The position numbers were made by a program, and so were the translations under genes. The notes under the pieces are model-generated. The model worked only from the letters and a program-made list of their open reading frames with translations. It was not told the origin of the DNA and did no database searches. A stretch of DNA of 64,000 bases from Harmothoe impar (lineage: Eukaryota > Annelida > Polychaeta > Phyllodocida > Polynoidae): contig OX381710.1 of NCBI GenBank assembly GCA_947462335.1, positions 30,867,004 through 30,931,003 on the forward strand, given 5' to 3'. This document shows positions 25,254 through 54,066 of this stretch, piece after piece. How positions within the stretch are numbered: the stretch's first letter is position 1; every line of letters begins with the position of its first letter.

Positions 25254-25547
25254 TTAAACAGAAGGGGCAGTGGTCATTCTCTTGGCTGCCTTGGTGTTTC
25301 TTCCATCTTGCTGACACACACTCAAGGGTAAGGGTACCTTATGGATACCATTAGTCTGTGTGGTCCCCCTCACTGAAGGCCTCTTAGGTGCTACCCTGGT
25401 GACGGTAGCGTTAGCGGCAGGTCTCTTGCAGGCGATGCAGTAGACAGTAACTTCTACCAGCAACTGGAGGAACTCGAAAATGGTCATCACAGAGAAGCCA
25501 ATGAAGAGGCCCAGCAGTCCACCAATGTCAGAGACAAGTTGTGCTTC
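25254..25547 (-). CDS. Channel exon 16: TM2, GFS selectivity filter and cytosolic tail
   Basis: Acceptor GCCCATAG|GAAGCA, then 97 codons and TAA at 25256-25254. LVSDIGGLLGLFIGFSVMT is the pore helix. The selectivity filter GxS is GFS at residues 716-718, and a small residue (Ser, in LVSD) sits at the degenerin position. The tail is short and basic with Thr/Pro. It has no PPxY motif, so Nedd4-type ubiquitination as in vertebrate ENaC is not predicted. Confidence 0.93.
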   Translation of the reverse strand, partial: EAQLVSDIGGLLGLFIGFSVMTIFEFLQLLVEVTVYCIACKRPAANATVTRVAPKRPSVRGTTQTNGIHKVPLPLSVCQQDGRNTKAAKRMTTAPSV

Positions 25548-28500
25548 CTATGGGCAAGGATATGTCAGATGATGAATAATTGATCATGAGGGCTTTTTGA
25601 CTGGATTTTATATAGAATATCAGAGAATCAATGTATCATGATACATACTTACAGACTGAAATAAAGTCAATCTCTACTCAATTGTGATTATCACGAACTT
25701 TATCGTTTTTCTATTGCAACAGATGGGTTAATAGTTTTAGCTTAAACATAATTTAAACAGAGTAAGCTATGTGGATATTGAACTACATGTATGTGCCTCT
25801 ACATGGGTAAAAATCGACACGCGCGACACGGCGACACGGCCCTTTTAAAAATCGACACGCGCGACACGGCCCTTTTAAAAATCGACGGACACATAGGACT
25901 GAGGAATAAAATTCGACAGACACATATATCTTAGGAATGAAATCTGACAGACACATAAAACTGGAGTATAAAATCTGACAGACACAGACAAGGTGTGACC
26001 GCCAAATGCTGCCTATAAAGGGGGAGGGGTGAAGGTGAGAAAATTGGGAGGGGCGGGGGGGTGCTATATACTCTCACACCTCATCCAAGCAGCATTCTCA
26101 CACCTGCAGCCGGTGTAAGAATGCTATGGCTGGGGGGGGGGGGGGGGGGGATAGGGATAGGAGTGCCCCTACATGGGTAAAAATCGACACGGGCGACACA
26201 GCGACACGGCCCTTTTAGGCCATTTTAAAAATCGACGGACACAGGAAAATTAGAGATAAAAATCGACTCACAGGGATTTTTCTATAAGTTCATATATATA
26301 TATATACCTAAAAATCGACAGGATGACAAGGCCCTTTTGCTAAAAATCGACACAGCGACACGGTCAAAATTCTGGGGACCCATGTAGAGGCACATGTATC
26401 TACCTCCTACATTATTTTCTATTTAAAGTATCATCTTGGTAATGCCCATTACCGTGAAAGCAGGCACTTCTGTAATGCTCTCCCAGTTGAGTTCCTCAAA
26501 GTACACCTCTACTTTGAGCAGGTTCCGCTTGTATTTGTCAGGATCGTTAGGGTCATCTAGGATACCTGGGATCCGTCCCCTCAGTGACTCCAAGGTTGTG
26601 TTCTGTATGTGAGAGTGTGGCACAATGAAAGGTTTGAATGAGAATATGATATAACTGCATGCTAAAATGTACGTCTATGGTGTCCATTATAATATAACAG
26701 CGACGACGATTCACCCACAAAGTTTCTCTTCCCCACACAAATACATAATGACAGTAAAATATATACAAATACTTTTGGTTGACGTTTCTTGTCTGGATTG
26801 ACAGCGATTACCATAGCCTTTTCGCATGTACAGCAAATAATATTTACCTTTAGTACATCATTTGGCCATTGTCCACTAGACACAGAACTTGTGAACCACA
26901 CTTGGCTGCAAAAAACAATGAGAAATATAAAAGAAAACTGGTCTCATTAGACATATACTATATACTATAGCCACTCCCAGGGAATAACATGCATGTTTAC
27001 TCTTTCATCATTCTTTTATTTTGGACTTCCCTTTATAATTGCATTATAACATTCATGATGTGTATTACATATATAGGTTGAAAGGAGAACATACCTACAT
27101 GGAGATGGGCAGTCACACTCAAATGTGTTATTGTTGAAATTGTCTGTGACGTCCTGCTTGCATTTAGCTGGGAAGGAAGGAAGGTATGCATTATATGAAT
27201 GTCTTCTTTTTTAATGGGGCAAAAAATCTCAAATGATAATTCAACGTTGGTGTCCATGGGAGTAGCTTATTCATCTGGATTATCGGAATGGGGTTGTTAT
27301 CATAATAATATGAGATTGTTCTGGCGCTTTACGGTCTGATAGGGTGAAAGAAATACGATTTCTGATCTTTCATATGATGGGGGAGCTGAGTGGCCAATGT
27401 GGAGAAATTTACATAATTAGTTGGGATATTTTACCCTGAGTGACATTAGCAGTGCTGCAGGCATAATATTCCTGACCCCCCAGGGCCTGTCCAGACATGG
27501 GGTAAGACGGGTCAGCACAGTCACATTGTGCTGTCAGTTCTTTCTGGTAACACGTCTTGCTGCAGCTCTGTAAAGAAAAGGTTGAAATTAACTTATTTAC
27601 TGAGGAGACAACCTCCATAGACAACATCCATACCTCAATGGACAACCCCTTATACCCCGGATATCTACCGGCAGTAAGTGTACCAACTATACTGGGTAGC
27701 ACATTGGAGTGATGTTGGATCTACATTATGTCACTACCATATTAGGGAAATCAGAGAATAGTGCCTGCAGTAGCAGACATCTATATACAAACTACATGTC
27801 ATGACATTTTGGATAATTCTGTAGAGCACTACAGGATATACACCTTACAGCCTACATTAACTAAACGTGTTGCATCCTCCCTGAAATGTGGTTCAGATCC
27901 TTTCTTTCAGGGAAGATGCAATCAGTGAAGGTTAATGGTATCACTTCTGACAAATTAATCAAAAGTGGGGTCCCTCAGGATTTCATCCTGGGTCCATTAT
28001 TAAATTCAAGAAAGCATTATATTGGGCGATACCCCTAAAGTCTGCGATTAAATCATGAAAGATATTCATGTGTGGTCCTTGTGTGGGCTCTCTCACCCGC
28101 CCACCCCTATCTATACACACCTTGAACAACATGCTACTCACATGACTAATCACACTTTTTATGTTAAAATGTCCATGCTTTCAAAGACTAATCCATTATT
28201 ATGCTATTCATTAAGTACACTGATATTGATACTCATGTAAAAAGGTGTGTAAGTGGTTTGTACCCGGACAATTAGGACCATGGCGTCCCCTGGATGCAAT
28301 TAGAATAAAGAATTTTGAATTGAATTGCATTGTGTTAATGATATTTGAAATAAAAGGTGGTTCTCTAAATGGATACTTATACATGTGTGACATGAGGGTT
28401 GAAACCGATCCATGTGAGCTAGGGCAAAATACTTACTGCTTGCCCATATGATTTGTGGAAGTACTCCATGAACAGATCTGTTGTGTTATCATCAAAGCCA

Positions 28501-31500
28501 TCTTCAATACAGTTGCTGTATCTTCCTCCCTGTCTCACGATACTTGTCTAAAATGAACATCGCACTGACACATTTTAGTCACTAAATCTTGTACCCTTGT
28601 AATTGTGCCATGTTGTCCAAAGAGAGGGCATAATGTTCCAGCATAATGTGAAACAAAGTTTGAATTAGATTCTATTAGCCCCTCCCACCCGGTAAGCCAA
28701 TAAATTGCACAAAATTGCATTAAGTTACAAGAAATCCAGTGGTGAAGGGGTTAAAAAGAGAAACACTTAGGGTTCCATGACTAGTTGACATACTAGTATG
28801 TATTTTTGTATTCATGATGTATTTCGATCTCAAAGGTGTTCGGCAATAGGTGCCCCTAAGGCTGTGTCTCACCAGATCGGACCAATGTGAACATCTTGGA
28901 CTGGGTAACATCTTTGACCGAGTGCCATCTTTGAATGGATGCCATGTTCGACCGGTCGCCACAAATCAAAGATTGAAAATAAATTCTTCTTTGATATGTA
29001 ATGGATAGAATAAAGAAAATGGCGGTGGTTATATCTCCATAATTATATATCTTCACCTGCCATAAATAGACCGTTTTCTGTCAGAAGGTCAAAGATAGCA
29101 CCCCGGGGATAGCACCCAGTTAGAGATGGCACCCGATCAAAAGATGGCATCCAGTCAAAGACGTTCAAATTGGCCAGACCTGGTGAGACACAGCCCTATA
29201 CTGTAAGATAGGTAAGCACATTCTGAGTGCGCAATATTCGACATTTGAAAGTTGAAAGGCCGAGGGAAAATCATGGATGCACCAAAAACCAGTTGAGTGA
29301 TAATATTGAAATGGGTGGAAGTTCATTATCTGTATGTGCAGCAAAGCCTGATAAAATGAATTATTGAGGAAGCATGAAGTATCTTTTATTTGTGGCATAC
29401 TAACCTGTCTGAGGCCGATGGAGGTGAGCAGGCCGGGCTGTAGGATGAGGCCCTCGTCCTCTGGGAAGGGCATGGTGTCCGGGGTGTGGGCTACAAGCCG
29501 GACACCTGCCACATCCCCAGCCGTCTTAACATACTCATCCTGCCCCACATTCAGCACCAGTGACAGCCCTGTAGGGGAGGTTTTACAAATAGATTACAAT
29601 GAATGTAATAATGCAAATCTGTGTTTATGGTACTAGGCCTATTCAGCTCCTGTGACATAAACCTCTGTGTGGGCCATATGAGATTTGAAAATAAAGGTAT
29701 GGGTGGGTGAAACAATGGTCCAATGATATTTGAAGCTAGACAATTTCAGCCATCATCTTATCCTGACAAGTTTGTCACAAGTAATAGCACCTTCTACCAC
29801 ACAACCAGTGAACAAGTTAAGCTCAAAGACCACTAGAGTCTGCAGGCTGTGAGCTGGGACCCCCAACAAACGGTGTATGGAGGGTTTTTGGTGATTCTGG
29901 CTTGTGAGACCCCACTGAGCACAGTCCCATTCAGTGCTAAGCTGGCACTGCCAGGGAAATCTATAAAAGACGTTTTCCCAACTGGCTCCCGGGAAAATGA
30001 TGACTCTCAGAAAAATTTATATCTCTGCTGATTGATAATCTAGAATTTTGATTTCAACACCAAATAATATGTTTGCAAGGTCAGAAGTTCAAAATGTGTC
30101 CATATAAAAGCGATTCAACCTCAAGGTCAAGGGCAATTCAGAAGTAAAACTTCCTTTTTTGTTATTTTACATTGAAATCAACTGAAGAACAAATATATGA
30201 TACTAGGTACTATTATCATAGACATAGTGAAATTACATCATTCACGGTCACGGTCAAGGTCAAAGTCAAGGTAAAGTCAAAGCTTAAGATTCCATTTTGG
30301 CACCTTGTTACGGATCAGCTTACTTTTCCCCTTACACTGTTCAGAATATGAAAAATGCTCAGTTGATAAAGTATACTTCTTCACTAAAAGATTATTCACT
30401 AAAATATCATGGTCAAACAATTTATTCACTTAAATATCATGGTAAAACAAACAGTTTGATCTATATTGAAATCAATGATAATTCATCTGATTCAAGATTG
30501 CAGTGATTTTAAACAATATCATAGTCAGCCAAGAGTCTCAATTTGGTTATTCATCTGAGGAACTGTCATTTATTATGACCTTCCTCGGTTTCGGCACCCT
30601 TCCCCATCTTCAAATCTGCAGAACACACTTCTTATCTTCCCCTTCCTTGCCTTCCCCTTGACAACCTGAGCTCGCAGAGAACCCACATTGTCAATATCTG
30701 GGTGGCATAGGAGGCTGCCGTGGAGATTCTTGCTTCCTTTATGATGTCTGAAATGTTTGCAGTTAGATCCACCAGTAAGTCTATTAGTGAATATTATAAT
30801 CAGGATAGGAAATACATGATAGACATAATAATTCTTATACATTTACCAATTATGTGCAAAAAGGTATTGTGCCTTCATCCTAACCTTGACCTTGAGAACT
30901 GTAAGTGTAACATCTAATATTGTTATGGAAATGGTACCTAGCATCATGAACATGTCACAGGATAGATTATTATTGAAAATACCAGAATAGGAAGTTTAGT
31001 TTAACCTTGACCCTTACATTGACCTTCAATATGCCTATGATATAATAATAGTATTAGCATTGTATTCATTTTGGAGCCATTTTGGTAAAAAAAAGTCTTT
31101 TACGGTTTTTGGTGGTGCCAGCTTGGCACTGTATGGATTGTCTTAACTGGGGTCTCACGAGCCAGAATCCCCCAACCCCCCCCCCTATGTTGTTTGCTGC
31201 GAGGTTCAAGTAGATAGGCCAGTTCCGCAACCGGACTACTACCTGATTTCTGGGTATCTCTGCGGATTTGGAACACGTTTTGGGGGGATCATCAAGAATC
31301 GCAGTTTTACCCTTATTGCAAGGATATAGGCTATACGATTATTGGACAATGTCTTCTAACATGATATGATATGTATGACAGACATACCATAACGGCGTCC
31401 GGTCTTCCAACTCATCCTTTGATTGCTAATGTTATGATTGAATGTGTAGCAGTTTCCAAGAATCGGGTTGAAGTAGGTCTCTATGTCACTAATAGTTAAA

Positions 31501-34500
31501 AAAGAGCCGAGCTTATTCACATACTGAACACATCATGTAACATAACTCATGATAATTAAACATGAGGGGATCAATGCAGGTAACGAAGCAACCAAAGATA
31601 AATAAATAAGAAGGGGTATACACACAAGTGACTGGGTAAAGATTGTAAGATTGTAAGATTTTTTATTCAAGCTTAGTCACGGTTTACACTGCGATATTCG
31701 TAAGTTGAACAAACACTATGTACATATAGGTTTAACATATAAATACATAAGTTTGTAGTTTCAAGTCAGCTATCAAGCTGACTGTAGCGGTCATTATCAT
31801 GTAGTTCTGTACCAAATTATTGCATCAAAAACAGAGATAAATCGTATGAGAAATATGAAGCTTGGAGAGTTGGCCCAGGGGGGCGACTTGAATTAATTTT
31901 ACCGGGATGTGTGGTCATGGGCCTCAACACATCACCCATATGTGAGTCGGCTGATTAGTTGAAAAATGACCCATAATGGTGCAGACCTACCAAGAATATG
32001 GACCCATATGTGTGCAACTTAGTTGCATTACCGGTAGTATAGATGAAATATAAACATGAACTACTCATCATAATGTATTACCTTTATCCAGTAAATGTCT
32101 GTAACTTACCAATTTACTTTGCTACAGCTATTAAGTTCTTTACAATACATTTTGTCTACATATAATTGTGCAGGTTTTGACACTGAGTATCACTACCCTA
32201 AATATCAGACCCATAACAGAGCAGCTCCTAAAAAAGATACCCATAATGGAGTTCACAGTCCCACTCAATGGAGGCTTAAAAAGGACCCATATCACTCCAA
32301 TTTTTGACCACACCTCCCGGTATGTTTGGAAGTGAGTCGCCCCCCTGGGAGAGTTGGCCAACTCCTTTGAAATTTGTCAACTAAGAAAGAGAGATTGTTC
32401 ATGAGAGAAAATTCGAGATGAGAGCACTCATGTGACGTTTTGATTCACAGAGGAGCAAAATTACTTGTGCCAACATTACTTTGGCTAAAACAGTGGTATT
32501 GATGACGATATAGAATAACACTTTACAGTCATCTCTAGCCACCATGGCTACTTGGAAATAAACGCGACATGCGTCCATCCAGGCTGAATTAGTTAAATAT
32601 GGGTATAAACAGAATCAGCATAACGTCAATATCTCCTCTCACCTTTGTATACAGAGCCGTCCATCATATTGACAGTCAATGAGAAGCTCATTTTGTTGGT
32701 AGCCGAGGGCTGACTTCTCAGCAACGGGAAGATCGGCAAGCAGCTCCGTGAACAGCTCAGCCTGAACATACTCAGCTGTTTGGGGCTGCTCTTCTACAGA
32801 ACCTGCTCACCAAAGGAAATTGACAATTTGGCATTAAAAACATTAAGGTGTTCATACATCATTGAATGCTGTCTTTACTTTATATGACCTTTGTGTCACA
32901 ATTGGCTGTGGTGATCTAGTGATGTCATGAAACTAAACAATACATACTGTTTCTAGAGAGAATAAGTTATTCATTCTAGAAGAGAATAAGGTGTTAAATC
33001 ATGGTAAGGTAATAGGAAATTCAAATAACATAATATCAATGTCAAAACATAAGTCAGAATACTGGATCTTTCATTTACCTTTAGAAAATAAGGTCGCTGC
33101 TGTAGATGATTCTGCATCGTAGATAAAGAGATAGATAACACAAACTGTCAATAGGTAACACGAACTGTCAATACCAGAATTATTATGCCAATGGGGAATC
33201 TTTTCACTATTGATAGTTTGAGGTGTCAATGAAACTGTCAATGAGAGATAGGAATCTTTTCCACTATTGACAGTTTGAATTGCCAAAAGGTTTTTTTCTT
33301 CCTAAATGATATTTACATTATTGGTAAGGTAATCCTATATATATATAGTAGTTCTGTAGCATTGTCACCAAATGGACAATCGCCACTGCACAACAAACTA
33401 CCCAATGGGCAAATTGGCAGTTGGCACAATCTTCAGGGGATTAATGCAACATTATTTACCCATAGTGTTGTATAAGTTGAAATTTAGAATTGAAAAGATT
33501 TTCAATAATATAGTAGTTTAGAAGATATCCCTCCTCCTTCTAGTGGGAATGGCATCCCTGGTGACAGACATTCTCCCCTCTGGAACTTTCCCTGAAAATT
33601 TTGAGACTATCTCGCCTAACACCCTTCCCCTCAAATCTCCCATGGGAATTCTCCCAACATCAACCCCCCTCCACCGGAATTCTCCCACCTGATCTCCTAC
33701 TATATGATTTGATTTTTATTTGTTTTTTATTTGGCAATAAAATGATCACAGTTGTCACAAAAAGCGTTTTTCAATGCATGCCAACGTTTTGTACAATATG
33801 GTTCACAACAATTTTAGTCATTGATAGTTCATGACAACTTAGTCATACCTGGACAGTTTATACCATATTGATATGAATACAGATGTCCTAGCGGGAGTAG
33901 GGCAATGCGCCCGTGCTAGGTTTAGATGCATATACATTAATCTTGATGTATCTGTATTTATCAAACCTAATAAAACATTAAAAAAAATTAGTCATGTGAG
34001 TCTGTCTCTAGATGAGCAGCGGCTCAAAGGTGGCTAGATTTGTCTTTGTTATGAAGGTTATAGGAACAGGTCCATATGCTGTTGTTCTGGTCTAAGTCTG
34101 TCAAAGCCGCACTCCACAGCTTACAGGAGTCTTTAGGTAGATGTCCTTTCCTCTCTCCTTTGTGTTTTGATTGCGAGACCAGCTCCACAAACTTCGTAGC
34201 TGAACAGATTTGCGAGCAGGATGGAGTGATTGACGGTATCGAATGCCTTGCGGAGGTCTAAGAAGACTACCACAGAGGGCCAACCTTTATTCAGGGACTC
34301 AAATATTTCATTTGTCAAACCAAAGATGGTGTCCATTGTTACAATCTTACAATCTTTACCCAGTCCATGAAACCCATTGTTCCATGAAACCCAGACATGC
34401 TCATGTGCCTGCACGTCTTGTAGAAGTTGTTGATGTATTAGCTTTTCCAAAGCTTTGAGCAGGCAGCAAGCAAACAAACTGGGTGCCAATTTCCTACTAG

Positions 34501-35443
34501 GCTGAGGTCGCCTGATTCTTACGCCTATGCTCTGGTTGGTGATCTTCAATGCTAGCAGGGGTCTGGTGAGTAGGGCATCCTTTACGACACATCCTCGTAT
34601 GTGGTCCACTCCTGTTGCTTTTATGGCATCCATCTTTTTGATGACTTTTACAAGTTGTGCATCTGTACATTGTTGAAGAACAAGTTTCTTCTCATCCGGC
34701 ACAAGTAGGGGTACATGTATCAATGGGGGGTCATTTGCAAATGCTGAGGCTGAGCTGTTCACGGAGCTGCTTGCTGATCTTCCCGTTGCTGAGAAGTCAG
34801 CCCTTGGCTACCAACAAAATGAGCTTCTCATTGACTGTCAATACAATATGGACGGCTCTATGTACAAAGGTCGATTCTGGTCCTATCTTGGTCTGGTAGG
34901 GGTACTTCAATGTCTTGCTGGTCACCACTCTACAGCTGTTTCAGAATGTTTTTGCTTTTTTTATGATGAAGACCATACGTGGTCACTGTTCAAAGCGGTC
35001 ATTCAGTAGATCTGATCCAGAACTGAAGTACCTCTAGGATGCATGGTAATGTGTGTAATGTGGACCCAAATTTCCCTGTCCCCATGACCGGACTATCTAT
35101 CAATTCCAGGAGTTGTTTGTAGGCTGTCTTCTTGTTGCCTTTTGGGGGTTTATGTACTGTCATAATCACCAGAGGTGATGTCCAGAGGTTACGGATAGCA
35201 TTCCGATGGTTTCAAGATGCTTACTGACAAGTGTCATGCCAGGCAAACTGATGTCACTGTTCCTGATGTTATAACGTAGCCAACTTTCTATTATGCATAG
35301 GTAATCACAATGAACTATAGTATTAACGGAATTCGGGTTAGTTGTAAGCAAATTCCTGACGTTCTGCCTGGATGATCATAATTTAAATAAGTATATCTGA
35401 CTTCAACCTTTGAGATTATATGAGAATGTTCTTATGCATTTTA

Positions 35444-35483
<40 letters not shown>

Positions 35484-38400
35484 ACAGAAAGAAAGAAAGA
35501 AAGAAAATTTAATATAAAAATAGGAAAGAAAGAAAGCATAGAAAGCTTACTAAAAATGAGTAGAGAATATTGTATCCTACACACACAGAAAAGTGAGAGT
35601 CATTGTCCCTAAAACTACTGCCTGACTCTCAGGTGAAGGTAGTTTTAGCGACAATGACTCTCACTTTTCTGAGGGTGTATCTAGGGAAGGGCCCGGGAAA
35701 GAGCCCCAGGACACGTTTGTGCAATTTTTATACACTGGATTACACTAGTCCACGTAGACACATCCAGTCCTCAATTAAATAATAGGACCACTTAAAAATC
35801 TGGCGTCTACATTGGACCAGCTAATTTAGCTATCTCTTCATCAGCGACATTTGGCAGCAATGCTAGCTATTAGATAACAATATTCACGAAAACATTGCAT
35901 GCATAATGTCAATGTATGAGCGTTTTGCCATCAAACGAAGTGTGATCCCACCTGGTGTTCCAGAAGCCGCAGTAGTCGCAGCAGCGGTTTCAGTTGGAGG
36001 AAACGTAGTTGTAGTCGCAGCAGTCGCAGCAGGCGCAGCAGGCGCAGCAGTCGCAGCAGGCGCAGCAGTCGCAGCAGGCGCAGCAGGCGCAGCAGTGCTG
36101 CTTTCAGTTGTTGTAACAGTGCTGGCTTTATTGGTGGTAAATCATGGAATTATAAACACTCATCATACACATGGTGCCACTTATTGGCTTTTACTATTAT
36201 CAGTTATTGAATTGAAATATATTTATTGGCTGAAAAATCTACATAAGATACATTGAGTTTTTCATTTAGCAGCCAAGTCACCTCCTGCAAAAGAAGGATC
36301 GGATAGAAAAGAGTTCATGTTATGTTTAGAGTTATTCACAAGTTCTTTGTCAAAGAGATTATAAGAGTTTCAGCATTGGGTAGATCTACTACACTATAAG
36401 GCACTAAGGAATTTCCGACTGTCTTTCAGTTTCTGAGTCTCTGGTGGCAGTCTGTTCCAGTCCTCCATCCCGCGTAGCAGTGGGCTCTTGTCGTAGACAT
36501 CACTCCGGGATCTCATGCATTTCAGTTTCACTTTAGCATTGGCTCGTAGAACTCTCGTAGGCACTACTATGTTGTCCATTATGGTGTTTCAATATTGGAT
36601 ATTCGTAATACTTTTATTCTTTTTTTTGTCAAATGAGCAGCGCTCTTTATTTTCCATAAGTAGTATATAGGTGAGTACATTTATCGAGCTGCTATGTTTT
36701 TTCCTGACAAAATATGTCTACCTAGTATATGGGTCATGCATTCTCCACATTGTATAAGGATGTCAGGTTTTCATGATAATGCACAAAGGACAGGACAGAC
36801 TAACATAGACAGGACAGACAAAACAGGACGGGACAACACAAGCTCAGTTACAATGCGATTACAATTATGCTAATTACAACAATCTCTCCAAGATATCCTC
36901 CAAGATGAGGAATTTCTTCACCTTATTTTCTCGCTTGCAAATTTCTCTTTCTGCTAGTAGTTTTCCTTTGAATTTTCTGGCCCAATCTAGCACATCTAGA
37001 TGGTTTTTGTGAAACAATCTTTGTCTATAAATATAAAATTGAATAGTATAAAGTTCTCTATTCTGGATGCCGATGTTGTATTTGGATTGTTCTAGGGCAC
37101 TTTTGTAGTCGTGGTCCCACGGGATAACAACTACCTCCTCGTTTCTTACAGGATAAGACCTTCCTCAATCTCATCATCAATGGAAAATCGTAGCACATTT
37201 TTCATCCACTTTCGTACCATATGCCAGAAGAAGGCTACATCTGGACAGTAGAGCAGAAAATGGGCGATATTGTCCTCCTGACCACAATATAAACATTCTG
37301 CGGAATCCACACCTTTCCTTTTAAACAGATACCGCCTACAGGGAAGGATACGTTGATATATTTTGAATTGCAAAGATTGAAGTTTTGTTTCTCTGGCTGC
37401 CCTTGTTTATAATTTTTTCCATAGATCAGGTTCTGTAGTCATGCATGGATAGACCTCTGTCCACCTTAATTGTGAAGAAGGAGTTTTGTAGTGTATTCTC
37501 CTTACCACATTATATATTGTTTTACTTGAGATAGAAAATAAGTTGACAGTTTCACCTATGCCAGCCCTTAAACACAAGAAGAGCGGAGTGTGATTAATTT
37601 CCTCACAAGTTATTTTCATTGACCATGGGATGGCAGACTTAATTTGTAACATTTGCAGAAAATTACATTTTACTCCATATATATATAATATATATATATG
37701 GTTGTCATCTCATTATGGTTCATAAAGCTACCATTTGATATCAAGTCTCGTACCTGCACAATACCTGCCTCTCTCCACTCCTTCCATTGTTCCAAATGCT
37801 CTCATTTTGAAATTCTTCTTCATTTTTTGGATAATGATGATAAATCTTTATCCAAGTCTCTAGGATATCCGTATAGAATGGATTTGCAATATCTTTGATC
37901 TTACTTCTTTTCTTTTCTAGGAAGGTGTAAAAGAGGGAGGTCTACACATTGAAGATAATTATATCTTGGATATATTGTCCATCTTTGATGTTCAGATAAC
38001 CAAAGTCTCTTAATCCAGTGCAATTGGCTAGATCTAACCATCGATTCAAAATCTAACAACCTTAACCGTCTTTCTCCTATTGGCAGGCACATTGTACATA
38101 TGATAGGCAACTCTGTTCACAGCACTACCCCAGAGAAATTAACTTTCTGAAAATACTTTTATTCTTAATGCTGTCTCTCCATATTTATATCATATTTTAC
38201 ACAAAGAAACTCTCAAACTGTTGATGACAAAAAAAAGGTACCTACTAGTTTGACACATCACACGATGGCTTGCAGTACACGCTGATGGTTCAAATAGGTG
38301 ATTGGCCTGTCCATCAGCATAGAGGCAGGCTCCAGACCCAGTTGGCTTTTTTCCGTTTGATCCTGCATCCTTCCAATTGCCGCCTGCCACTTGCTCACCA

Positions 38401-41400
38401 GATGGCCATATCCATTTCCCTGCCGCCGCATTCCCTTGTTGATTTGCATTCAACCAGTAGCTAGAGAAGAGAGAATTGTTTTCAGCTTATAAGGCCACTT
38501 GAAAAAGATCAGCTTTACGGACATCTCCTGCATGGGTGCTTTAAAATGAAAGATTTCATAAAAAAAAATATGACCAAAATCCCGCATGCATGAAGAGGGT
38601 AACAATGTCATATAATATACCGAACTAACCATACCTCAACCAATAATTGGTGTAGGAACTAGATTTAAAAAGCATTTTACTCCCTGTTTTATTCTCAATG
38701 TTTTTAAAGTATTGTCCCCATCATCTATGATGGTTAAATTGAAGATCATACAATGCATATATCCAAATTCTATTAAATCTGAAATATAAGAATTGGCCGC
38801 CCTCAATGCATAAAATAGGAATATCAAATAAAATAAAAAGCCTCCCTCCCGCATCTCCCCCCCCCCAAAGTATCCGCAGAGCTGATCATTATTTTCAAGC
38901 GGCCTAACATCTATAGTTTTCTCACATTTGGAATATGAGTGGTGTCATTCAAGCATGATCAGATGTGGAACTTTGTTGTGGGACTGTGGTGTTGGTGCTA
39001 GAGGAGCTGGGGTATATCAACAGAAGAAATGCTACTACGGTGTCATGTTCGTTGGATTAGTGAAGCACAAATCTATAGGTAAAGACAGGTGCAGTATACT
39101 TATAATATAATGCGAAAAAGACATAATGGTGTTTACAATATCATTTTGAGTTCACAGAATGTAACCAACGGTTTCTAAGATATCTACAGAGAGAAAAGAT
39201 ACAGGGTCATAAGGGAGTCCGGGTTGCCTCCACGATGATTCTCCTCTCTATAGGGGAGCCCAGGCTGCATAAGAGAGCCTATCTGACTCCCTGACTGAGC
39301 TAAGGGAGTCACGGGCGCACTTAAGAGAGTCGAATCAGGAGCAATGCTCACCTAGAGAGGGGGGGGGGGTCATTCTGGAGGCAACCTAAACTCCCTTTTG
39401 ACGCGGTTTCTTTTCTCTGTGTAATATATGACTCGGTGGGAAGTGAACTCCACCTGTTATATTTTAGTTTCTATGCACTCACCATCTTTATTACCTATGC
39501 CACAGTAACGTTCTATGTATAAACCTCTATTGACCTATCAAATTAGGGGTAAAATAGAGAAGGCACAACACAGAAAACAAATATAGAGTCTGATATAAAC
39601 CTTGGGGCACTGCTATAATGTGTTTTCATGTGTTCGATCTTTGCAGTCGTGTCTAACACTATGAGGGTGGTACCATTCTGTTCGCACTGGGAAACGGCAC
39701 TGCTCTGGGTGGTCGCAGTCGTGGCAGATAATTCATAGCACCATCTCATGTTCCCATCGACATATAGCTGTATACTACAAGCTGAAATAGAAGACGAATC
39801 TTAGAGTTATCTTGATGATCAAGGTTTTTTCTTTTGCTTTGATCCACATTGATTTATTAATTTTCACAATGAGACGTGTAAGGGTTCCCACTGAAAAGTA
39901 CTGGGGAAATGAACGTTCACAACTTGAGTGAATCAGGTGAATCTGGGAAGGTGACCATTACTTGGGAAAAACTTGGGAATCCCTCAAGAATTCACACCGG
40001 GAGTTCCTGTGAAACCGGAAGCAAGTTTTTGACCCAGGAGATACTACAGACTTTCTGAAGATGTATTCTCATACATTTATCCCCATACTATCATACAATT
40101 CACCCAAGTTTGAACTTGGGATATTTCCCAGTTATTACCAAGATTCACCTTTCTTGATGTACTCCCAGTTCTACACCCAATCGACATGTTCTATGGTGAG
40201 GGGCATTTCCTGTGCTTTTCTCAGGAAATGGACTTATGCAAAACTAGTGACATGTCCATAAGATTTCCACAAGTCTGGACTCTGGATATTCCCAAGTTAT
40301 TCTCGAGATTCACCCTTTTTGTCATACTTTCAGTTTTCTATGACATTGATATGTTCTATGGTGAGGGGCATTTCTTGTGCATTTCTCATGAAATGGACTT
40401 GTGCAAAACTAGTGACATGTCCATAAGATTTCCACAAGTCTAGACTTTGGATATTCCCAAGTAATTCCTGTGATTCACCCTTGTTTTCATAATCTAAGTT
40501 TTGTATGACATTGATATGTTCTATGATGAAGGGCATTTCTTGTGAATTTCTTAGGAAATGGACTTGTGCAAAACTAGTGACATGTCCATAAGATTTCCAT
40601 AAGTCTGGACTCTGGATATTCCCAAATTATTCCCCAGATTGTTGCTCTCTTGACAAAACTTAGGGCTTGACCCCTGTTGTCAAACCCTAAGTTTTGTAGA
40701 TAAAGGGAACACACTGACCCTGCCCCAGCTTAGTTAGCACCCCCCCCCTCCACACAAACACACTTGTGACATCCTTCCCTGGGGGCCCAGGGCTGCACCC
40801 AAGCCTGACTCAGCTCCTGGCCTAATCCTGTTATGATAGTACAGACACTGGGTATGTTACCTAGACAACAGGTCATGTGTTAGAATGTCTGCCTATATCA
40901 TAGTATCCATGCACCATTAGGCCATCCCTCCCCAACAGATACAGACAGGAAGAAGTAAAAGAGAGGGAGATGTGCAAATGCAATATTTTGAAGGTTTGTA
41001 CCCTTTTCTATATTATGCATTTATTGCTACATTACTTTGTATATCTATACATGTAGGTATATATAATGCATGTTGATGATTATATTCAACACAACAGATA
41101 GGACATGTTGAATTTTATATATGTGTAGGCCTATACTATAATTTTATAAATCTATGTCATTGCCTTGGTAGTATAATTATGCATATGCATGTTTTTGTAT
41201 ACTGTTTACATCAGACTCTGACAAAAATATGAAAAGAGTATTCTCTGCCTGACATAATTGTTATACATATGTTATGCCTCATATGCTAATTGTACATGTA
41301 TTTTGTTCTTTTAGGTCATTCCCAACAGCAGCTGCAATATGTAACATTCAGGGATACAGGAAGTTTAATTGATAATGTTGTGATGTGAAAACAAATAAAA

Positions 41401-44400
41401 GTGATAAATAAAGGAGCTGAACTGTGTATTTTGCTATAATTTAGTATTCATTAATGGTGTTATTCTGAGGCAAAGAAGTTGCCAAACTGGGGAACCATAA
41501 CTTGGGAGAAGCAGGTGAAAATCTGGGGAACCAAACTAGGGAACCATAACTTGGGAGAAGCAGGTGAAAATCTGGGGAATCATAACTCAGGAGAAACAAG
41601 TGCCAATCTTGGGAACTATGACTTGGGAGAAACAAGTGCCAATCTGGGGAGCCATTACATGAGAATTTGATCTTGTGGAAATCACAGGAATAACTTGAGA
41701 CCCAGACATGAGAAAAACTTGTGCAAATCATGAGAAATCTTGAGAATCAGACTTAGGAAATAAAGTTGTGTGAATCTGGGGATAAACTTAGGATTCAGAC
41801 TTAAGATATTATCTCAAGTATGCTAGGTTTTTTGCTGTCTACACTTTCCCGGGAACCCTCCCTTCCCAGTTCTGGAGAATCTCCCCAGTCGTGACTCGGG
41901 AAATTCCTAAGAATTTCCAAAGTTTTTGTTCAGTGGGTTGTAATAATAAGTGACAAAAGGATTTTGTGGAAGGTTGCCAAAATTGGACCGGCTTGTAAAT
42001 TGGACCATCCCTGTTTCCCTTAGTTACACTAATTGGAACAAAATTTCAGTTATGCAACATTTTGGGTAATTCCAAGTATATTCTCAACAAGTAACTTTTT
42101 TTTTGTGAAGGGGTCAGTAAAATGGTTCTTCTAAGGCTAATTGATTTTGGGACCTCCTGATCTTATTTTTCTAGTTGTTTACTTAAGCCCTCCCCGTTGC
42201 TAGGAAACAGTATTTGGAACAAAATCCTTTCAGATAGTAAGAAATGATATTTTGTTATTGGGTAATAATCAAAAAACTTAAAATTCACTGATAGGCTTTG
42301 GGAGAGAGAAAGTTGATGATAAATATGACAAGGCGCCTAAATTGGACCAAAACAAGTTTCCATAATTGGACCAGGTCCAATTATGGAAATTGACAATTTT
42401 TGACCGGCAGGAGTAAAAAATTCGACCCCGAAAACAATTCTCCCCAGAATATCTTGCCATCTGTTGTTAAAAGATGAGCACTCCCTTAGGGCATTCGAGT
42501 CACATACAAGCTGTTGCTGTAATTAACAGGACCTATCTATGAATCTAGCGAGAAAAAATAACAAAAACAAATTTTTTTATTTTTTTTCAAATGTCCCAAC
42601 TTTTTTTTTCACAGGGGTACTACCCATAATATGTAGGGTTGTTGGAAAGATATAAACGAGGAACTACACATCTGAACACATACCTGAAAGAAAACGATTA
42701 AGACCCGAAGAATATGTGAGAAAACTGACTGAATTAAGCATTGGTCCAATTTTGGATACCCGGTGGTCCGATTTAGGCACCCGGTATCCAAAATTGGACC
42801 GGTTGCATTCTTTTTTCATTGGCTTGTGGCAGCAAGAATAATTAAAATCTCAAACTTTTTTTTTACGATTAGAAGGCCTTTGACTAGGCTTACCCTTCAT
42901 ATGATTTTCATATTCAAATTACTAGAAATAAACGCTACACAGTGAAGTGTTCTTAGGGGGTCCAATTTTGGCAACCTTCCCTTAAGGTAGATAAATATCA
43001 TTGTTCGCAGTATACGTGTATATACAGGTTCAACTAGAACCTGAATAGCGGGTTTAAGGAAGGGATACAAATAATGATGGTGTCATATTTACTGATTGAG
43101 ATAGTATCTGATGAGTACAAACTTTGGGTTTGTCTTAAATATTATTTTACACGAATATAGATAGCATCTCAAAAGTGATGGCAGACAAAAAAACAAAATA
43201 TACAACATTGCTCAATTCCTGAATTGGCTCGACGTTGGCGACTATGTTTCTTCTGTTGGCTATCATTTAAGCTCTTCTGCTTTATCTCCCCCCGAGTTGA
43301 CACATTCCTCTTTCGTCTACGCCTTCCCGACACAATGTTTTGTATGCTGGGAATAGTCTCTAGTAGAGAGCTAAAAGAGAAACATCGTAAGATTCAGAGA
43401 TCAGAAACCACATTATACAATTAATATTACTATCAATAACACTTCAGATTTAAGATTTAACTAGCGGCACAATTTTCTATGACATAGGTGGCACACAATA
43501 CACAGAGAAAGGTAAAGGTGTCACCATAGCTCTTCTACCAGAGTCAACTCTAGTTGACTCTCATTACAGAATCATGATGACTTTGGTAGAAGGGTCACAG
43601 CTTCTTTAGTCGTACCCTTGCCCCTTGTACAACTTGACTTTCCCTTTAGTAAAGAGTCAATTGAAGTTGGCCCCTCCCACAACAGAGCCATTGCCCAGGT
43701 AGCAAGGGTATATTGGGCCAATGTCGACAATGATCGACTCCATCGCAATCGTTATACCAACCTTGGCCCATTGTAGGTAATGCATACATTGGTTCAACAT
43801 ACAAATTACAATGATGGCCCACCCTTGGCAATTCCTATAATGGGCCATTGCTGGGTTGACCGCTGGCCCAGAGCTGGCCCATGCTTGATATTGCTGATAT
43901 TGACCCAGTGTTGGCCCAGTGTTGGAACATTTCAGGGCCATCATATTATTTCTGATGTTGGACCAACATCGATTCTAACTACACTTGTCCAATATTGGCT
44001 GTGATCTACACCAGGGGGATTCAATGTTGCCTGAAGAATATCTTACAGGATGGCTCCAACTTTGCCATCATATTGGGTTATTAATGTGATCCCCAGTGTG
44101 CTCTACATGTTTAAAGGTCAGAGGAAGTTCATGGATGAAATTTGATATCTAAAAGTGCAATTTACTGCATGACATTAGTGGGAATCTGTCAAAAGGAACT
44201 TGAAGACACCTCATGTGTGGCTAATGGAGTTAGATAAGTCCTAAATCATAGTAATACAGTTTGTATGGTGTCTAACCAATTTGGGATAGAGATCAAGATG
44301 GATTGAAAAGACAGAAATGGCTTTTCCTAAACTGATGATACTTGACAGTCATGTCTTAAATGTGTTTGTACATTCAATTATACACATAAAAATAGTATTG

Positions 44401-47400
44401 TTCAATATAAGTGATTGTTGCAGTTGTCCTATATTGAGAATTATATGTTGGAGCCACATATGTATTTCAAGGTTGCCCCGATGTTTAATTTGTAACCTTG
44501 GAATAATGTAAAAACATTTTAATGTTGGCCCACCATTGGGCCAACATGAAATCAATATCCCTTTTTCCGAGCATGGGCCATTACTGGGCCAGCGGTCAAA
44601 CCAGCGGTGGGCCAATATCAAAATGCCAATATTGGCCCATTTTTAAGTGGTATATTGGCCCAATGATGGCCCAATGTACTTATGTTACCTGGGTGGTTGC
44701 TTGACTCCTCATGAAATGAAGAGTGTTAAAAAAAATTGATTAGTTGCATAGGATACCATGGGACCATAAGACTTGGAACTTACTGTCTGACATGTATGTA
44801 AGACACTGATTACTTCTACATATACACCTATGATATTGGCATTTAATTTGAAGCATGTAGATCTATATTGGTCTGCGAAATGGGAGTGTGCATGAGGCTG
44901 GTATAAACTATTCCTCTCACACAAGGAAAATTGGTGTCCATGTCTCGTTATTGACCCCTCTTGAGCAATACCCTAACCCACTTACTTCTCTCACTGGCCT
45001 CACCTGGCTTCTTCACTAATATACCTGTTGCCCCCACTCTACCCTCACATAATTATAAAATCAACCCTACTGATAAGTATCGATTTTGACTCCTCTTTTT
45101 TGATTCAACTGTAATTCACTTTCCAGAAACGGAGTCACAATCACTTGACCCCCCGTTATCAGAGTCACACGGGAGACAAACTGTGACTCTGGCTGTCAGA
45201 GTCATGGGGACTCCTTTACTTTTCTCTGTATAGATATTGTGGGTAACATCACCAGATCATGAAATTGGTATATCATGTTTTATCAGACATCGGGTAGGTC
45301 TATACAAATGGCCTAATAAAAGCAATAATTATAGTATACGATTAATTGGATATCAATCTGATATAGTAAATATATCCGAAATTAAGGCAAGGCTCAAATT
45401 AATGTACCACTTTTCCCTCTAATGTATTTCAATAATGAGATTGAGTCATTATCACAGAAAACATCCTCTGGAGGAATGGTACTCACGGATACTGCAGCGC
45501 TATACAAAGTGACAGACGTAGTGAAAGAAGAGGGAGTGAAATATGTTATTGCAAATGAGAAGTTTTGCAAACTGCAGCTACAATCTATAAATCTAGCCTA
45601 ATCTAATCTGCATAGGGCTTCTACTAACAGGATGCTGGAGAAAGTACTTGAGGCAAATCCAAAGAGCAGAAGAAGAGAAGATATCAAAAGGAATTAAGGG
45701 ACAGGTGAGGCAACACTGTAACTGATGTGTTAATCCAATACCAATGGGATATAGTGACCAGGTCTTGATATGATATGTAGCATATAAATATAGATAAGTG
45801 ACACCTACCTCTTTACCGGGTTTATATTACACACAGTTATAGCTGGAAATTTCAACTCGAGTGATGTTTCGATCTTTGTTTTGATGTTCACAGGATAGTC
45901 GAAGTACTTCTCAAACGATAGGTAGAGTGTGAGCACAAGAAGTACCAAGGTGCCCAAGGTGATGAGGATCCAGAATAATTTCCTCAGCTTTCCTATGTAA
46001 AGGGTCACATGATTTTCATAAAAGCTATGTTTACAGATTATCAGAACTCAGGCTTATGTATGTACGGAGGGTGAAAGTGATGGTATTCTTAGGGAGTGGT
46101 CACTTGTTAAAAACAGAGGTTGGGGTGGAGGTGGATTTTGGGGCCTTGAAGGGGAGGATCAAACATTTTGAACCCCTTATAGTGGGGAGGGCAACGAAAA
46201 GTAGACCCATTTAGAACAAAAAGCACTTTATTTATAGCCAAAAAGGGGTCGGCAATAATAAATTTCAAACCTTCTGGGGAGGGGGAACAAAAGAAATTTG
46301 GACCCCTCTCTCATCAGTTTGTGATGCTTATTGGTTGCTTCTCAGTGCAATTTTGGTTGATTATTGCCTCTAAAGTATCATTAAGAGATATCTGCAGTCT
46401 CCCCCTGCATAAACCATGGCCTTTGTAATATTGTAAATCTCAGGGATTCCAAAGCAAACTATCCAAATCACAATACTTGGTAATAATATTAGTAAGGTAT
46501 GTCTCGGCCGATAATGCCATTGGATTGGGACAAGATTAAGACCTCGTTGCATATCGCCAAATTGCATTTAATCCCCAGAGTTTGCTCCACCTAAATCGCA
46601 CTATAAAGTTTAGGCATCACGCATCCCCTGTGCCTTCATTATCCCATTTCAGTGATGGGTGGACAGCGGATGTGGGATGTATGTCCCTGTGAATGACTGG
46701 CATGTTGCTTTAAAGCACTTGAAGGGTTAAATAGCTGATAATCATAACGGTGTGATACCCGAACCCCTAGTGGGATGATCTTGTACATGATGGCAAATTA
46801 TTTCATCGCACCATCGCCTACAAGATTACACCCCCGTGAACTATACACTGTTAAAAGCAAATGCAGCTGAGCAATAGAATCCACTGTAGTTTTACATTAT
46901 ACTACGGTATTACTATACATGGGAAGTAGAATATAGTACTGGTTTACAGTATAATATGAGCAGATGGTACGTAGCTCACCAGTGTGCACGGACCAACGTT
47001 TAGAGTGAGTCTTAATCAAGTCTTAATATAGCTTAGTGTTTAAGGTGTCTGACTATTTTGGGTCAAAAGTATGTAGATTTACTCCTAATATTTACCCAAT
47101 ACACCTTATGTAATTTGGAACCAACCGCGAAGAGAAAAGTAGGGGGTCCCAAGCTACTTTTTAAAATATTGAATTTTGAAAAACAAAATTATAGCTCTCT
47201 AAGATTGAACCAGAGAATCCTTTATATTGAGAGCAGTGGTAGTAAAAGTATCGTCATATTTTTTAATTTCTCCAGCCCTGCCTTGAGCAGTGGATTAATG
47301 GGATCAGCACTGAACTTGGACACTGGGGTTGTGAGTTCGCTCCTTGGTCAATCCACCACTTTTACTCAATCTACTCTATAGGAGAGCGCACACGTCACAT

Positions 47401-50400
47401 GCACAGAAATCGTCGCAATGAACCTGTTTAGCAAGGTAGGCAACCACCTTAAGTCTAAGTCAATAGTGTTTAAAGTATTCATCAATAATAAAAAAGGAAA
47501 AGCTACTGACCAGAGGCATTAGCAACATGGGGAATTCCGTGGGCCGTTGTGTTCCCCTTAAATTGGTGCCAAATGACTTGGTATCCCCAATCTGCGCTCT
47601 GCTCCTCCAGGCCCTTCTCCAGGTGCTCCTCCGTCATGATGGATGGGTGCACCATGGGTAGGCAGTTCGATGACCTGCTACTTTTGCCGCTCCCTATCTG
47701 TCACAGTGTTAAAGAGCCTCATCTTGTATGACATTATATTACCTATTCTATTAGCTTGATCAGCATGTGACCTACCTTATTAGAAAGATGAATTATTTCT
47801 CTTTAAAGACTGATGGGATATTTCTTTTTATTTATATATATATATATATATTTTATAAATATCACACACTTTACATTTAGATATATGTGAGCAGCCAAGC
47901 AGAAAGGATGGTCCCCGCGGGATTAGTTCCGATTTTAGCCACCAGGGGGCGCCACTATGGCCTAAAATGAAAGAATTAGGCTAAAAATAGCTCTTGGGTA
48001 CTTTTTTCTGGAGAATTCAATAGGATTACATAACACATTCCATTTTTGGTGAAAAGCTTCCATATTTGGAACGTAAAAAGAACGTTTTAGAGCCTAAATG
48101 TGTGTCTTTGTTGATATGTGTTGCCATGGAAACGTGATTTTCATTCTAAATTAAGATATTAAGTAGCTCATTGATAAAATGATTCATTGGGATTACTATT
48201 GTCAAAACAGAATAGAATTATCATTTCTAGATTAAAATCTATGGCCTATAGGATAAAAATGTATGATCATTTTCTAATTATTCTAATTATGCTAATTACA
48301 TAGAGATATCTAGGAAACTAAGGGACTTGGAGCTTATTGGGGTTTTGGATAGGGCAATGCCCACCCATATTCATCCAGTCATTTCTCAAAAACTAGAAAT
48401 GATATCTTCTTGTGTAATATATCACTGGAAAGCTTATGATATAAATTTTAAAGTTGACATTTTCATTGGATATCCCTTTCCCCTTGCCTGTACACATATT
48501 TCCTATTGAAGAGATCAGTGATTTGGGCTGCGGACCATGACTCAGGGGCCGTACATGGTATACGGTTGTATGTGAAGGGGGAGGGGGCTAAAATAAAGAT
48601 ATCTCGAGGCCTGATACACAACAACAGGATATACTTTCTATATATGTAACTTTCTTTACATTATCTCCAATATCCTAGTCACAGTTGTAGGGTGGGGGCA
48701 CCTGTTATGAATGCTCCTGGACCATTAATAGGTGACCATCTTTAGATGATCGATTCGACACATTTAAAGTATGCACATTTTAACATGGTTACCCCACTGG
48801 ACACATATGATATATCAGCATATATTCCTGAAGGAAAATTCCTTCCTCAAATACAAATCAGTATGCATCTAATATGTTGATTTCAAAAAGTTGAATTGAA
48901 CCTAAAGTCGGACACCTCATGTCAGAAATGATCCTTGAGTCGGACACTATGATATGATTATGATAAACAGTAGGTTTTTAAGTGATACCCTAGTGGATAT
49001 AGTCAAACTCAACATATTATTATGTCCCTCAAACAGTTAGTAAATAGAAGAACTATTCCTTAATTTAGAGTAGTTCTGCTCCATTTCAATGTTGAGTGCC
49101 TGGTTCAGCACCATCACTGAAGGCACATACCAAGGGACCTGGAAATTGGGAAACAGAATCCCGTTACCAAAGGGCGGAGACCTGACTTCTGTGAGCAACT
49201 GGAGACCAGTGTGTCTCCTCAATGTGTGCAGCAAAGTGTGTGAGAAGCTGCTACATAGTCAACTACTGACCCACCTGGTCTGCTACAACTACCTGTCTAG
49301 CAGACAGTTCGGTTTCATTCTGGGTAGGAGTACCACAGGTGCCATCTTTGGCCTGACACTTGAGCTCTACAATGCCTTGAACACTGCCTTCCGCATTCCT
49401 ATTCTTGGATCTGTGGAAGGCTTTCAACACAGTGAACCATGTGATTCTACTCAGGAGTACGGTATGGACGAAACAGCTGTGGGCTGGTTTGCTAGATACC
49501 TAGAAAACTGTCAACAATGTACCACAGCAAACAACCAACGAAGTGACTCAAGACATGTAACATGCGGTGTGCCCCAAGGATCGGTCTTGGGGCCACTGCT
49601 GTTCCTCCTGTATATAAATAGTGTGGTCACCTGTATGAGTGCATACATGTATGCAGACGATCTGGCTGTGATAGCGACAGGCAGAGATCCAGCAAAAATC
49701 CATATGCTACTGCAAACCAACACCGCTACTGTACATAGGAAACTGGTGCACAGAAAACCGGCTGACAGTCACTGATAAACTCACATTATGGGGGTATACC
49801 CAAAAGGAACAAGGCTTGACATAGCTGGCTTAGATGTGACGCTCCAAGGAAAGAATCTGCTCAGCAAAGTACAACAGTACAATTACCTTGGCCTTACAAT
49901 TGAACAGCACATGACACTTGGTCCACAGTGCAACAAAATCATTGGCATGGTCAGGAACAGACTGGTTCAACTAAAAAGGATACGGATGAGGAGGGGTAAG
50001 GAGGCCTGTCTACCCATCTACAAACATATGATCCTACCAACAATGGAATATGGCCACATCCTCCTTGATAGAGCACCAGCTTGGGCAATGCCTAAACTGC
50101 AGGTCCTGCAAAATGACTGCCTGAGGGTCTGCGATAAACGATCCACGGGACATTGATATACCAACGCTTCATGTAAATAACAATGCCACCATGCAACATG
50201 AGAGATTGAACCATCAGATTCTGGCATATATGTACTCGCTGGCACAGATGGAAAGCAATCGAATTGCCCCCCAATGAGAGTTAACAGGGAATATCAAAAT
50301 CAAAATCAAAGTCCAGAGACCAGTAAAAGACATTTTCTACTGCAGCCTACTGTACCATGGGTGTAAGCTCTGGGTTAGGCTCACATCTGCATGAGCAACA

Positions 50401-54066: not shown

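What the first reader, a model, noticed from the sequence alone, without database searches (positions are those of the whole stretch)
25254..54066. A sodium-channel (ENaC/ASIC) subunit with a C-type lectin domain inside its extracellular loop
Reading splice sites by hand gives sixteen exons whose phases chain without a break from the HG motif through TM1, a lectin domain, a Thr/Ala/Pro stalk and the full ENaC ectodomain to TM2. ENaC/degenerin family members I know of do not carry a lectin domain in this place. Such a receptor-channel could sense glycans, matrix or microbes, or be tethered through its stalk. The sensing role is inference; the domain order is read from the sequence.
Basis: partly seen in the sequence, partly recalled or inferred. 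Interest (0 to 1): 0.92.

Follow-up and report, generated by a model that had tools for sequence, protein, structure and literature searches.

The report
Sodium channel with a lectin head
The genome of a likely annelid worm carries two related genes, each predicted to make an ENaC-type sodium channel subunit with a C-type-lectin-like head on a threonine-rich stalk inside its outer part, which would let whatever the head binds influence the channel.

Summary
On the minus strand, 16 coding exons (47655 to 25254) chain in phase with GT-AG borders into a 780-residue protein: HG motif, TM1, two furin-like sites 26 residues apart, a C-type-lectin-like domain (CTLD), a Thr/Ala/Pro stalk, then the ENaC finger-to-TM2 region. 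The proposed first exon near 54066 is unsupported. A diverged paralog on another large contig has the same order in 9.4 kb, with introns of only 198 and 152 bp on either side of its lectin-stalk exons, so a separate lectin gene hardly fits. The CTLD is under purifying selection. The lectin-stalk exons form a phase 1-1 cassette, as exon shuffling predicts. Mitochondrial gene order points to an annelid. Classic sugar-binding motifs are missing, so glycan sensing is unsupported; protein or matrix binding, or a tethered modulator as in polycystin-1, is likelier. No transcript, structure or current could be tested. Open-access paper searches showed no report of this architecture.

The parts
47511..47655 (-). 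coding exon e2: start Met, N-terminus, HG motif (TAHGIPH)
   Evidence: model; e2-e3 are 69.9% identical in aa to the C10 paralog; ENaC alignment over HG
45809..45992 (-). coding exon e3: TM1 and first palm strand (FPAITVCNINPVK)
   Evidence: hydropathy peak starting at residue 57
43204..43370 (-). coding exon e4: two furin-like sites (RRKR ending at residue 131, RQRR ending at 157) around a 26-residue tract
   Evidence: weak donor; paralog exon has RRKR and RRRR; weak match in the paralog (E 0.007)
39601..39781 (-). coding exon e5: first half of the CTLD (phase 1 to 2)
38242..38460 (-). coding exon e6: second half of the CTLD (phase 2 to 2)
35952..36121 (-). coding exon e7: Thr/Ala/Pro stalk (phase 2 to 1)
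   Evidence: a longer Thr-rich exon at the same place in the paralog
33079..33111 (-). coding exon e8: 33-base stalk exon (phase 1 to 1), no counterpart in the paralog
32643..32802 (-). coding exon e9: start of the finger region (LIDCQYDGRLC)
   Evidence: paralog match 75% identical
31388..31488 (-). coding exon e10: YFNPILGNCYTFN
29405..29568 (-). coding exon e11: most conserved exon, 98.2% aa identity with the paralog at dS 0.448
28437..28547 (-). coding exon e12
27435..27567 (-). coding exon e13: cysteine-rich region
27095..27167 (-). coding exon e14
26848..26905 (-). coding exon e15
26453..26602 (-). coding exon e16: last palm stretch leading to TM2
25254..25547 (-). coding exon e17: TM2 with G-x-S filter (GFS) and C-terminus, stop TAA
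   Evidence: hydropathy peak starting at 696
   Evidence: only a GT donor at its end

Best explanation
The window encodes a predicted ENaC-type sodium channel subunit in which a C-type-lectin-like domain on a Thr/Ala/Pro stalk lies between TM1 and the finger, and the head likely works as a tethered binding module that tunes the channel's opening. Shown by sequence: domain order, exon phases, collinear paralog, selection on the CTLD. Inferred, in order: (1) the subunit forms a trimer, possibly with the C10 paralog; (2) a furin-type protease cuts at RRKR and RQRR, releasing a 26-residue tract and leaving the CTLD near a new free N-terminus, still joined to the finger through the stalk; (3) the CTLD binds a matrix or cell-surface protein, or a neighbouring subunit, more likely than a sugar in the classic Ca2+-dependent way; (4) binding or pull, passed through the stalk to the finger, changes opening, much as the polycystin-1 CTLD activates the PC-1/PC-2 channel. 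The cassette likely arose by exon shuffling into a phase-1 intron before the duplication that made the two genes.
For: Unbroken 780-aa frame over 16 exons. ASC 303.8 bits; Lectin_C 31.6 bits, over its cut-off, on the lectin part. ENaC alignments on both sides of the insert. Paralog C10:17489034-17498419 with 15 exons in the same order, phases and strand: nine rows, e5, the others by a more sensitive local search, model. With the lectin part as query, 11 candidates in the genome were scored and 4 matched, all four in these two loci. CTLD pN 0.323 against pS 0.584; 0 of 1000 bootstraps with pN at or above pS. Introns of 198, 209 and 152 bp before the lectin, before the stalk and after the stalk in the paralog. 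Cassette e5-e8 is phase 1 to 1, and the CTLD-less relative C11a has a phase-1 intron before its finger exon (read by hand). Furin-like pairs in both copies. Precedent for a CTLD gating a channel: PMC7728438, passages. Precedent for double-cleavage activation of ENaC, with the excised mouse alpha tract 206-231: PMC8791634, passages.
Against: No transcript, protein or current. The paralog's CTLD alone gave no Pfam hit at E 0.01, and a profile of the two CTLDs matches solved CTLDs only weakly (best 0.0011), below a collagen-adhesin row whose own stretches are not significant. e4 is not clearly constrained (omega 0.80; 271 of 1000 bootstraps with pN at or above pS) and neither is e14-e15 (132 of 1000), so the furin tract is among the least constrained parts. 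Skipping e5-e8 stays in frame, so a lectin-free isoform may exist. Poly(A)-like hexamers exist: 15 in the 10.4 kb from e4 to e9 against 6 in the 7.1 kb after e9, one of them at 36132 just before e7, and in the paralog one lies 5 bases into the 152-bp intron after the stalk exon. I chose the paralog's splice sites with the window model in view.
Confidence: 0.7

Rival explanations
1. The lectin-stalk cassette is optional: one gene makes both a plain ENaC-like subunit (e4 joined to e9) and a lectin-headed one by alternative splicing.
For: The cassette is phase 1-1; skipping e5-e8 leaves a 579-aa open frame. The e4 donor looks weak (by eye).
Against: No RNA to show it. Selection on the CTLD shows that the included form matters.
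Confidence: 0.3
2. The CTLD is only a passive anchor or a structural stand-in for the ENaC GRIP region, with no effect on gating.
For: It sits between TM1 and the finger, where ENaC carries its GRIP domain (PMC8791634 passages). Sugar motifs are absent. CTLD identity (53.0%) is lower than that of e9-e17 (75.6%).
Against: pN is well below pS and the CTLD cysteines are kept in both copies, which fits a folded, used surface.
Confidence: 0.25
3. Two genes read as one: a lectin gene nested in an intron of an ordinary ENaC-like gene.
For: The window's introns from e4 to e9 are 3422, 1140, 2120, 2840 and 276 bp and hold retroelement-like frames and poly(A)-like hexamers.
Against: In the paralog the introns next to the lectin and stalk exons are 198, 209 and 152 bp; exons keep phase and strand; the same nesting would have to persist on a second contig. 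A start codon or signal peptide of its own for the lectin exons was not systematically searched for.
Confidence: 0.04
4. A recent decayed fusion with no function.
For: No expression data.
Against: Both copies are open over 780 and 786 aa, and pN is below pS in the CTLD and in the ENaC part.
Confidence: 0.03

Closest known systems
Vertebrate ENaC alpha/gamma subunits (DEG/ENaC family, Pfam ASC)
   Same: HG motif, TM1, finger to TM2 with G-x-S filter; two furin-like sites after TM1 with a 26-residue tract, the length of the mouse alpha tract 206-231
   Different: a CTLD and a Thr/Ala/Pro stalk follow the second furin-like site; likely annelid, not vertebrate
ENaC-like relatives in the same genome (C11, about 23.00-23.04 Mb)
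   Same: related exons on both sides of the TM1-finger gap; C11a has furin-like sites and a phase-1 intron before the finger exon
   Different: no CTLD found between TM1 and finger exons, and no lectin-exon match on C11
FaNaC / peptide-gated annelid and mollusc DEG/ENaC channels
   Same: same superfamily; a solved FMRFamide-gated channel matches at 142 bits; ENaC and annelid FaNaC/WaNaC share a major clade in PMC9822975 (passages)
   Different: scores below ENaC; no lectin domain known to me (recalled)
Polycystin-1 (PC-1) C-type lectin domain
   Same: a CTLD in the ectodomain of a channel complex, tied to proteolysis, that activates the channel (PMC7728438 passages)
   Different: unrelated channel family; there the CTLD lies in the long N-terminus between PKD repeats, here between TM1 and the finger
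CTLDs of LY75, CD69 and E-selectin
   Same: sequence similarity of the lectin exons (E 7.7e-6, 1.1e-4, 2.5e-4)
   Different: not joined to a channel; E-selectin's Ca2+/sugar motifs (recalled) are lacking here

Membership tests
DEG/ENaC family | Pfam ASC match over the whole channel | tested here: met
   303.8 bits against cut-off 23.6, residues 34-711
DEG/ENaC family | HG motif before TM1 and G/S-x-S filter in TM2 | tested here: met
   TAHG aligned with ENaC HG; GFS at 700-702; filter rule from PMC8791634 passages; the HG rule is recalled
DEG/ENaC family | two TM segments around one large ectodomain | tested here: met
   two hydropathy peaks over the threshold, at 57 and 696
DEG/ENaC family | trimeric amiloride-sensitive Na+ current | not testable with these tools
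   needs expression
ENaC with GRIP-type double cleavage | two furin motifs flanking a tract after TM1 | tested here: met
   RRKR 128-131 and RQRR 154-157; paralog RRKR and RRRR; cleavage itself untested
ENaC with GRIP-type double cleavage | cleavage activates the channel | not testable with these tools
   needs electrophysiology
C-type-lectin-like domain | Lectin_C profile over the curated cut-off | tested here: met
   lectin part of the window 31.6 against 22.6 bits, though not listed for the whole protein; the paralog CTLD alone gave no hit at E 0.01
C-type-lectin-like domain | six cysteines of the long form (pattern recalled) | tested here: met
   167, 180, 198, 271, 287, 295; counterparts 148, 161, 179, 254, 270, 279 in the paralog
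Ca2+-dependent sugar-binding C-type lectin | EPN or QPD motif and WND motif (recalled) | tested here: not met
   KPT, and HLFEPSAC or HRFRPSDC, at those places in the two copies (alignment, judged by eye)

The most novel reading that the evidence does not exclude
A lectin-gated sodium channel: protease cutting just ahead of the CTLD frees a tethered lectin head that acts as the channel's own agonist or load sensor, and splicing of the in-frame lectin-stalk cassette switches the same gene between a plain ENaC and a lectin-headed receptor channel.
Probability: 0.22. Interest if true: 0.87.

Novelty: new variant of a known kind. Interest (0 to 1): 0.7.

Why it matters
DEG/ENaC channels are described as sharing one plan, two TM segments and a large extracellular domain (PMC9822975 passage). 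A duplicated, selected gene in which a whole binding module sits beside the ENaC proteolysis region would show how such a channel can become a receptor by exon shuffling. It would put ENaC-style double cleavage sites outside vertebrates, whereas the vertebrate study ties their steady presence to the move to land (PMC8791634 passages). It would also give a second channel family, after polycystin-1, in which a CTLD could gate ions.

Tried and rejected
First exon chain with the e6 donor at 38246: frame broke at e7, so the donor at 38242 was taken. Large protein search with the whole model: 7993 candidates scored, none at E 0.001 or better; whether that collection covers annelids is unknown, so the spread over species stays untested. 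Lead that some ASC loci on C20 and C5 might be long single-exon genes with other inserted domains: no open frame of 300 aa or more in the two stretches fetched; dropped. Gene conversion as the reason for the 95-98% identical e11: rejected, its dS of 0.448 is like that of e14-e16 (0.474). Other lectin-ENaC neighbours: the 150 listed Lectin_C matches (150 scored of 1358 candidates) against the 105 ASC matches (93 scored of 847), by eye: nearest pair about 18 kb apart on C5, no further fusion seen; neither of the two fusion loci appears in that Lectin_C list, so it can miss such genes. First dN/dS run had a wrong e17 in the paralog and was redone. tRNA search on the mitochondrial contigs found none (bacterial code), so gene order rests on protein genes. 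Structure prediction was not used: its stated rule takes proteins read letter for letter from DNA, and this one is spliced.

Full report
Gene model. Reading the minus strand and joining 16 coding exons from ATG 47655 to stop 25254 gives a 780-aa protein with no internal stop; all 15 introns are GT-AG. One joint (e6/e7) failed on the first try and was resolved by another donor four bases on; the e4 donor looks weak.

Domains. Pfam gives ASC at 3.1e-90 over residues 34-711; Lectin_C is found when the lectin exons are scanned alone (2.9e-7, over the cut-off) but is not listed for the whole protein. In solved structures, ENaC gamma is best (2.5e-50), with separate matches before and after the insert; ENaC subunits score above ASIC5, FaNaC and ASIC1. 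The insert matches CTLDs of LY75, CD69 and E-selectin. There are two hydropathy peaks over the threshold, furin-like motifs at 128-131 and 154-157, and a 68-residue stalk with 25 A, 19 T, 8 P and 7 S. The tract between the furin sites is 26 residues, the length of the mouse alpha tract 206-231 named in PMC8791634 (passages seen); e4 as a whole is little constrained here.

Paralog. A search of the window's own 1.51-Gb genome with the protein found a collinear second gene on C10 (nine rows, in which 58 of 9380 first-look candidates were scored); with the lectin part as query, 11 candidates were scored and 4 matched, all in the two loci. The remaining exons came from a more sensitive local search, e4 only weakly (E 0.007). 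I placed the borders by homology and GT-AG sites: 15 exons, 786 aa, phases in and out equal to the window's in all 15; the window's 33-base e8 has no counterpart. The sites were chosen with the window model in view, and two borders (the e4 donor, and e6/e7) had alternatives. Introns next to the lectin and stalk exons are 198, 209 and 152 bp, which leaves little room for a separate lectin gene. CTLD identity is 53.0%, pN 0.323, pS 0.584, 0 of 1000 bootstraps with pN at or above pS; the ENaC part e9-e17 is 75.6% identical with omega 0.24. e4 and e14-e15 are not clearly constrained (271 and 132 of 1000). The stalk differs much in length (68 against 124 residues) but is Thr-rich in both.

Against a single gene. 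Poly(A)-like hexamers are no rarer in the lectin region than after it: 15 in 10.4 kb (e4 to e9) against 6 in 7.1 kb after e9, one at 36132 just before e7; in the paralog one lies 5 bases into the intron after the stalk exon. I take these as background, but RNA must decide.

Origin. The cassette e5-e8 begins and ends in phase 1, and leaving it out keeps a 579-aa frame. In a relative without a CTLD (C11a) the intron before the finger exon is phase 1 as well, read by hand, with furin-like sites on both sides of it. This is what exon shuffling into an existing intron predicts. The mitochondrial contig C736 has a COX1 frame without stops under tables 5, 9, 13, 14 and 24 (4 stops under table 2); table 5 is my choice. 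All on one strand it shows cox1-cox2-cox3-nad6-cob-atp6-nad5-nad4L-nad4 and nad1-nad3-nad2. Nine of the ten proteins scanned had a Pfam match; nad6 had none, nad2 has only a family it shares with nad4 and nad5, and nad4L was not scanned, so these three are placed by eye; cox1 comes from its own family search. The order nad6/cob after cox3, atp6 between cob and nad5, nad5 before nad4L/nad4, and nad3 between nad1 and nad2 is what PMC2639372 lists for annelids (passages seen).

What it likely does. The channel part is complete by sequence. The CTLD keeps its cysteines but lacks the EPN/QPD and WND motifs (recalled), so I expect protein or matrix binding, or contact within the trimer, rather than classic sugar binding. 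[quoted passage not shown] I take that as a model, not as homology. Proteolysis, ligand, trimer and gating effect are inferred.

Novelty. Six of the ten join ENaC or amiloride channel with lectin: 1 paper (passages, unrelated), 100 holding three of four terms (none of the 15 listed holds 'lectin domain'), 4, 0, 0 and 8 holding five of six terms. Apart's paper I judged these by listing only; no title or abstract start describes this architecture. The library holds open-access papers only. PMC9822975 (passages) places human ENaC and annelid FaNaC/WaNaC in one major clade and has no occurrence of 'lectin' in its main text.

Noticed in passing
window 34741-34871 (+): An inverted, 92% identical, 131-base partial copy of exon e9 lies in intron e7-e8, beside and partly overlapping a reverse-transcriptase-like frame (34133-34807, -, by eye).
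   Followed up: partly
window 14254-17169 (+): Open frame of 971 aa that looks by eye like a LINE protein (endonuclease plus reverse transcriptase); described only.
   Followed up: no
G000 C466 (L039, L040): A second mitochondrial-type contig whose COX1 is only 51% identical to that of C736 and looks flatworm-like (recalled), hinting at a parasite, prey or contaminant in the assembly.
   Followed up: partly
G000 C7:58645832-58865106 and other places: Clusters of DEG/ENaC genes readable in one open frame: 13 of the genome's 105 listed ASC matches (93 of 847 candidates scored) lie in this one 0.22-Mb stretch.
   Followed up: no
L025, C10:17485810-17486434: A frameshifted partial copy of the e16-e17 region lies just upstream of the C10 gene, perhaps a third, decayed neighbour; whether it had lectin exons is unknown.
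   Followed up: partly
L033, C11 about 23.01 Mb: The CTLD-less ENaC-like gene C11a also has two furin-like sites after TM1 (GRKKR and RRKKR), about 12 residues apart once its phase-1 intron is removed (by hand).
   Followed up: partly
G000 C1:53776887-53785136, C6:77106894-77108957, C15:42799633-42801261: Long open frames (776-837 aa) with several tandem C-type lectin domains.
   Followed up: no
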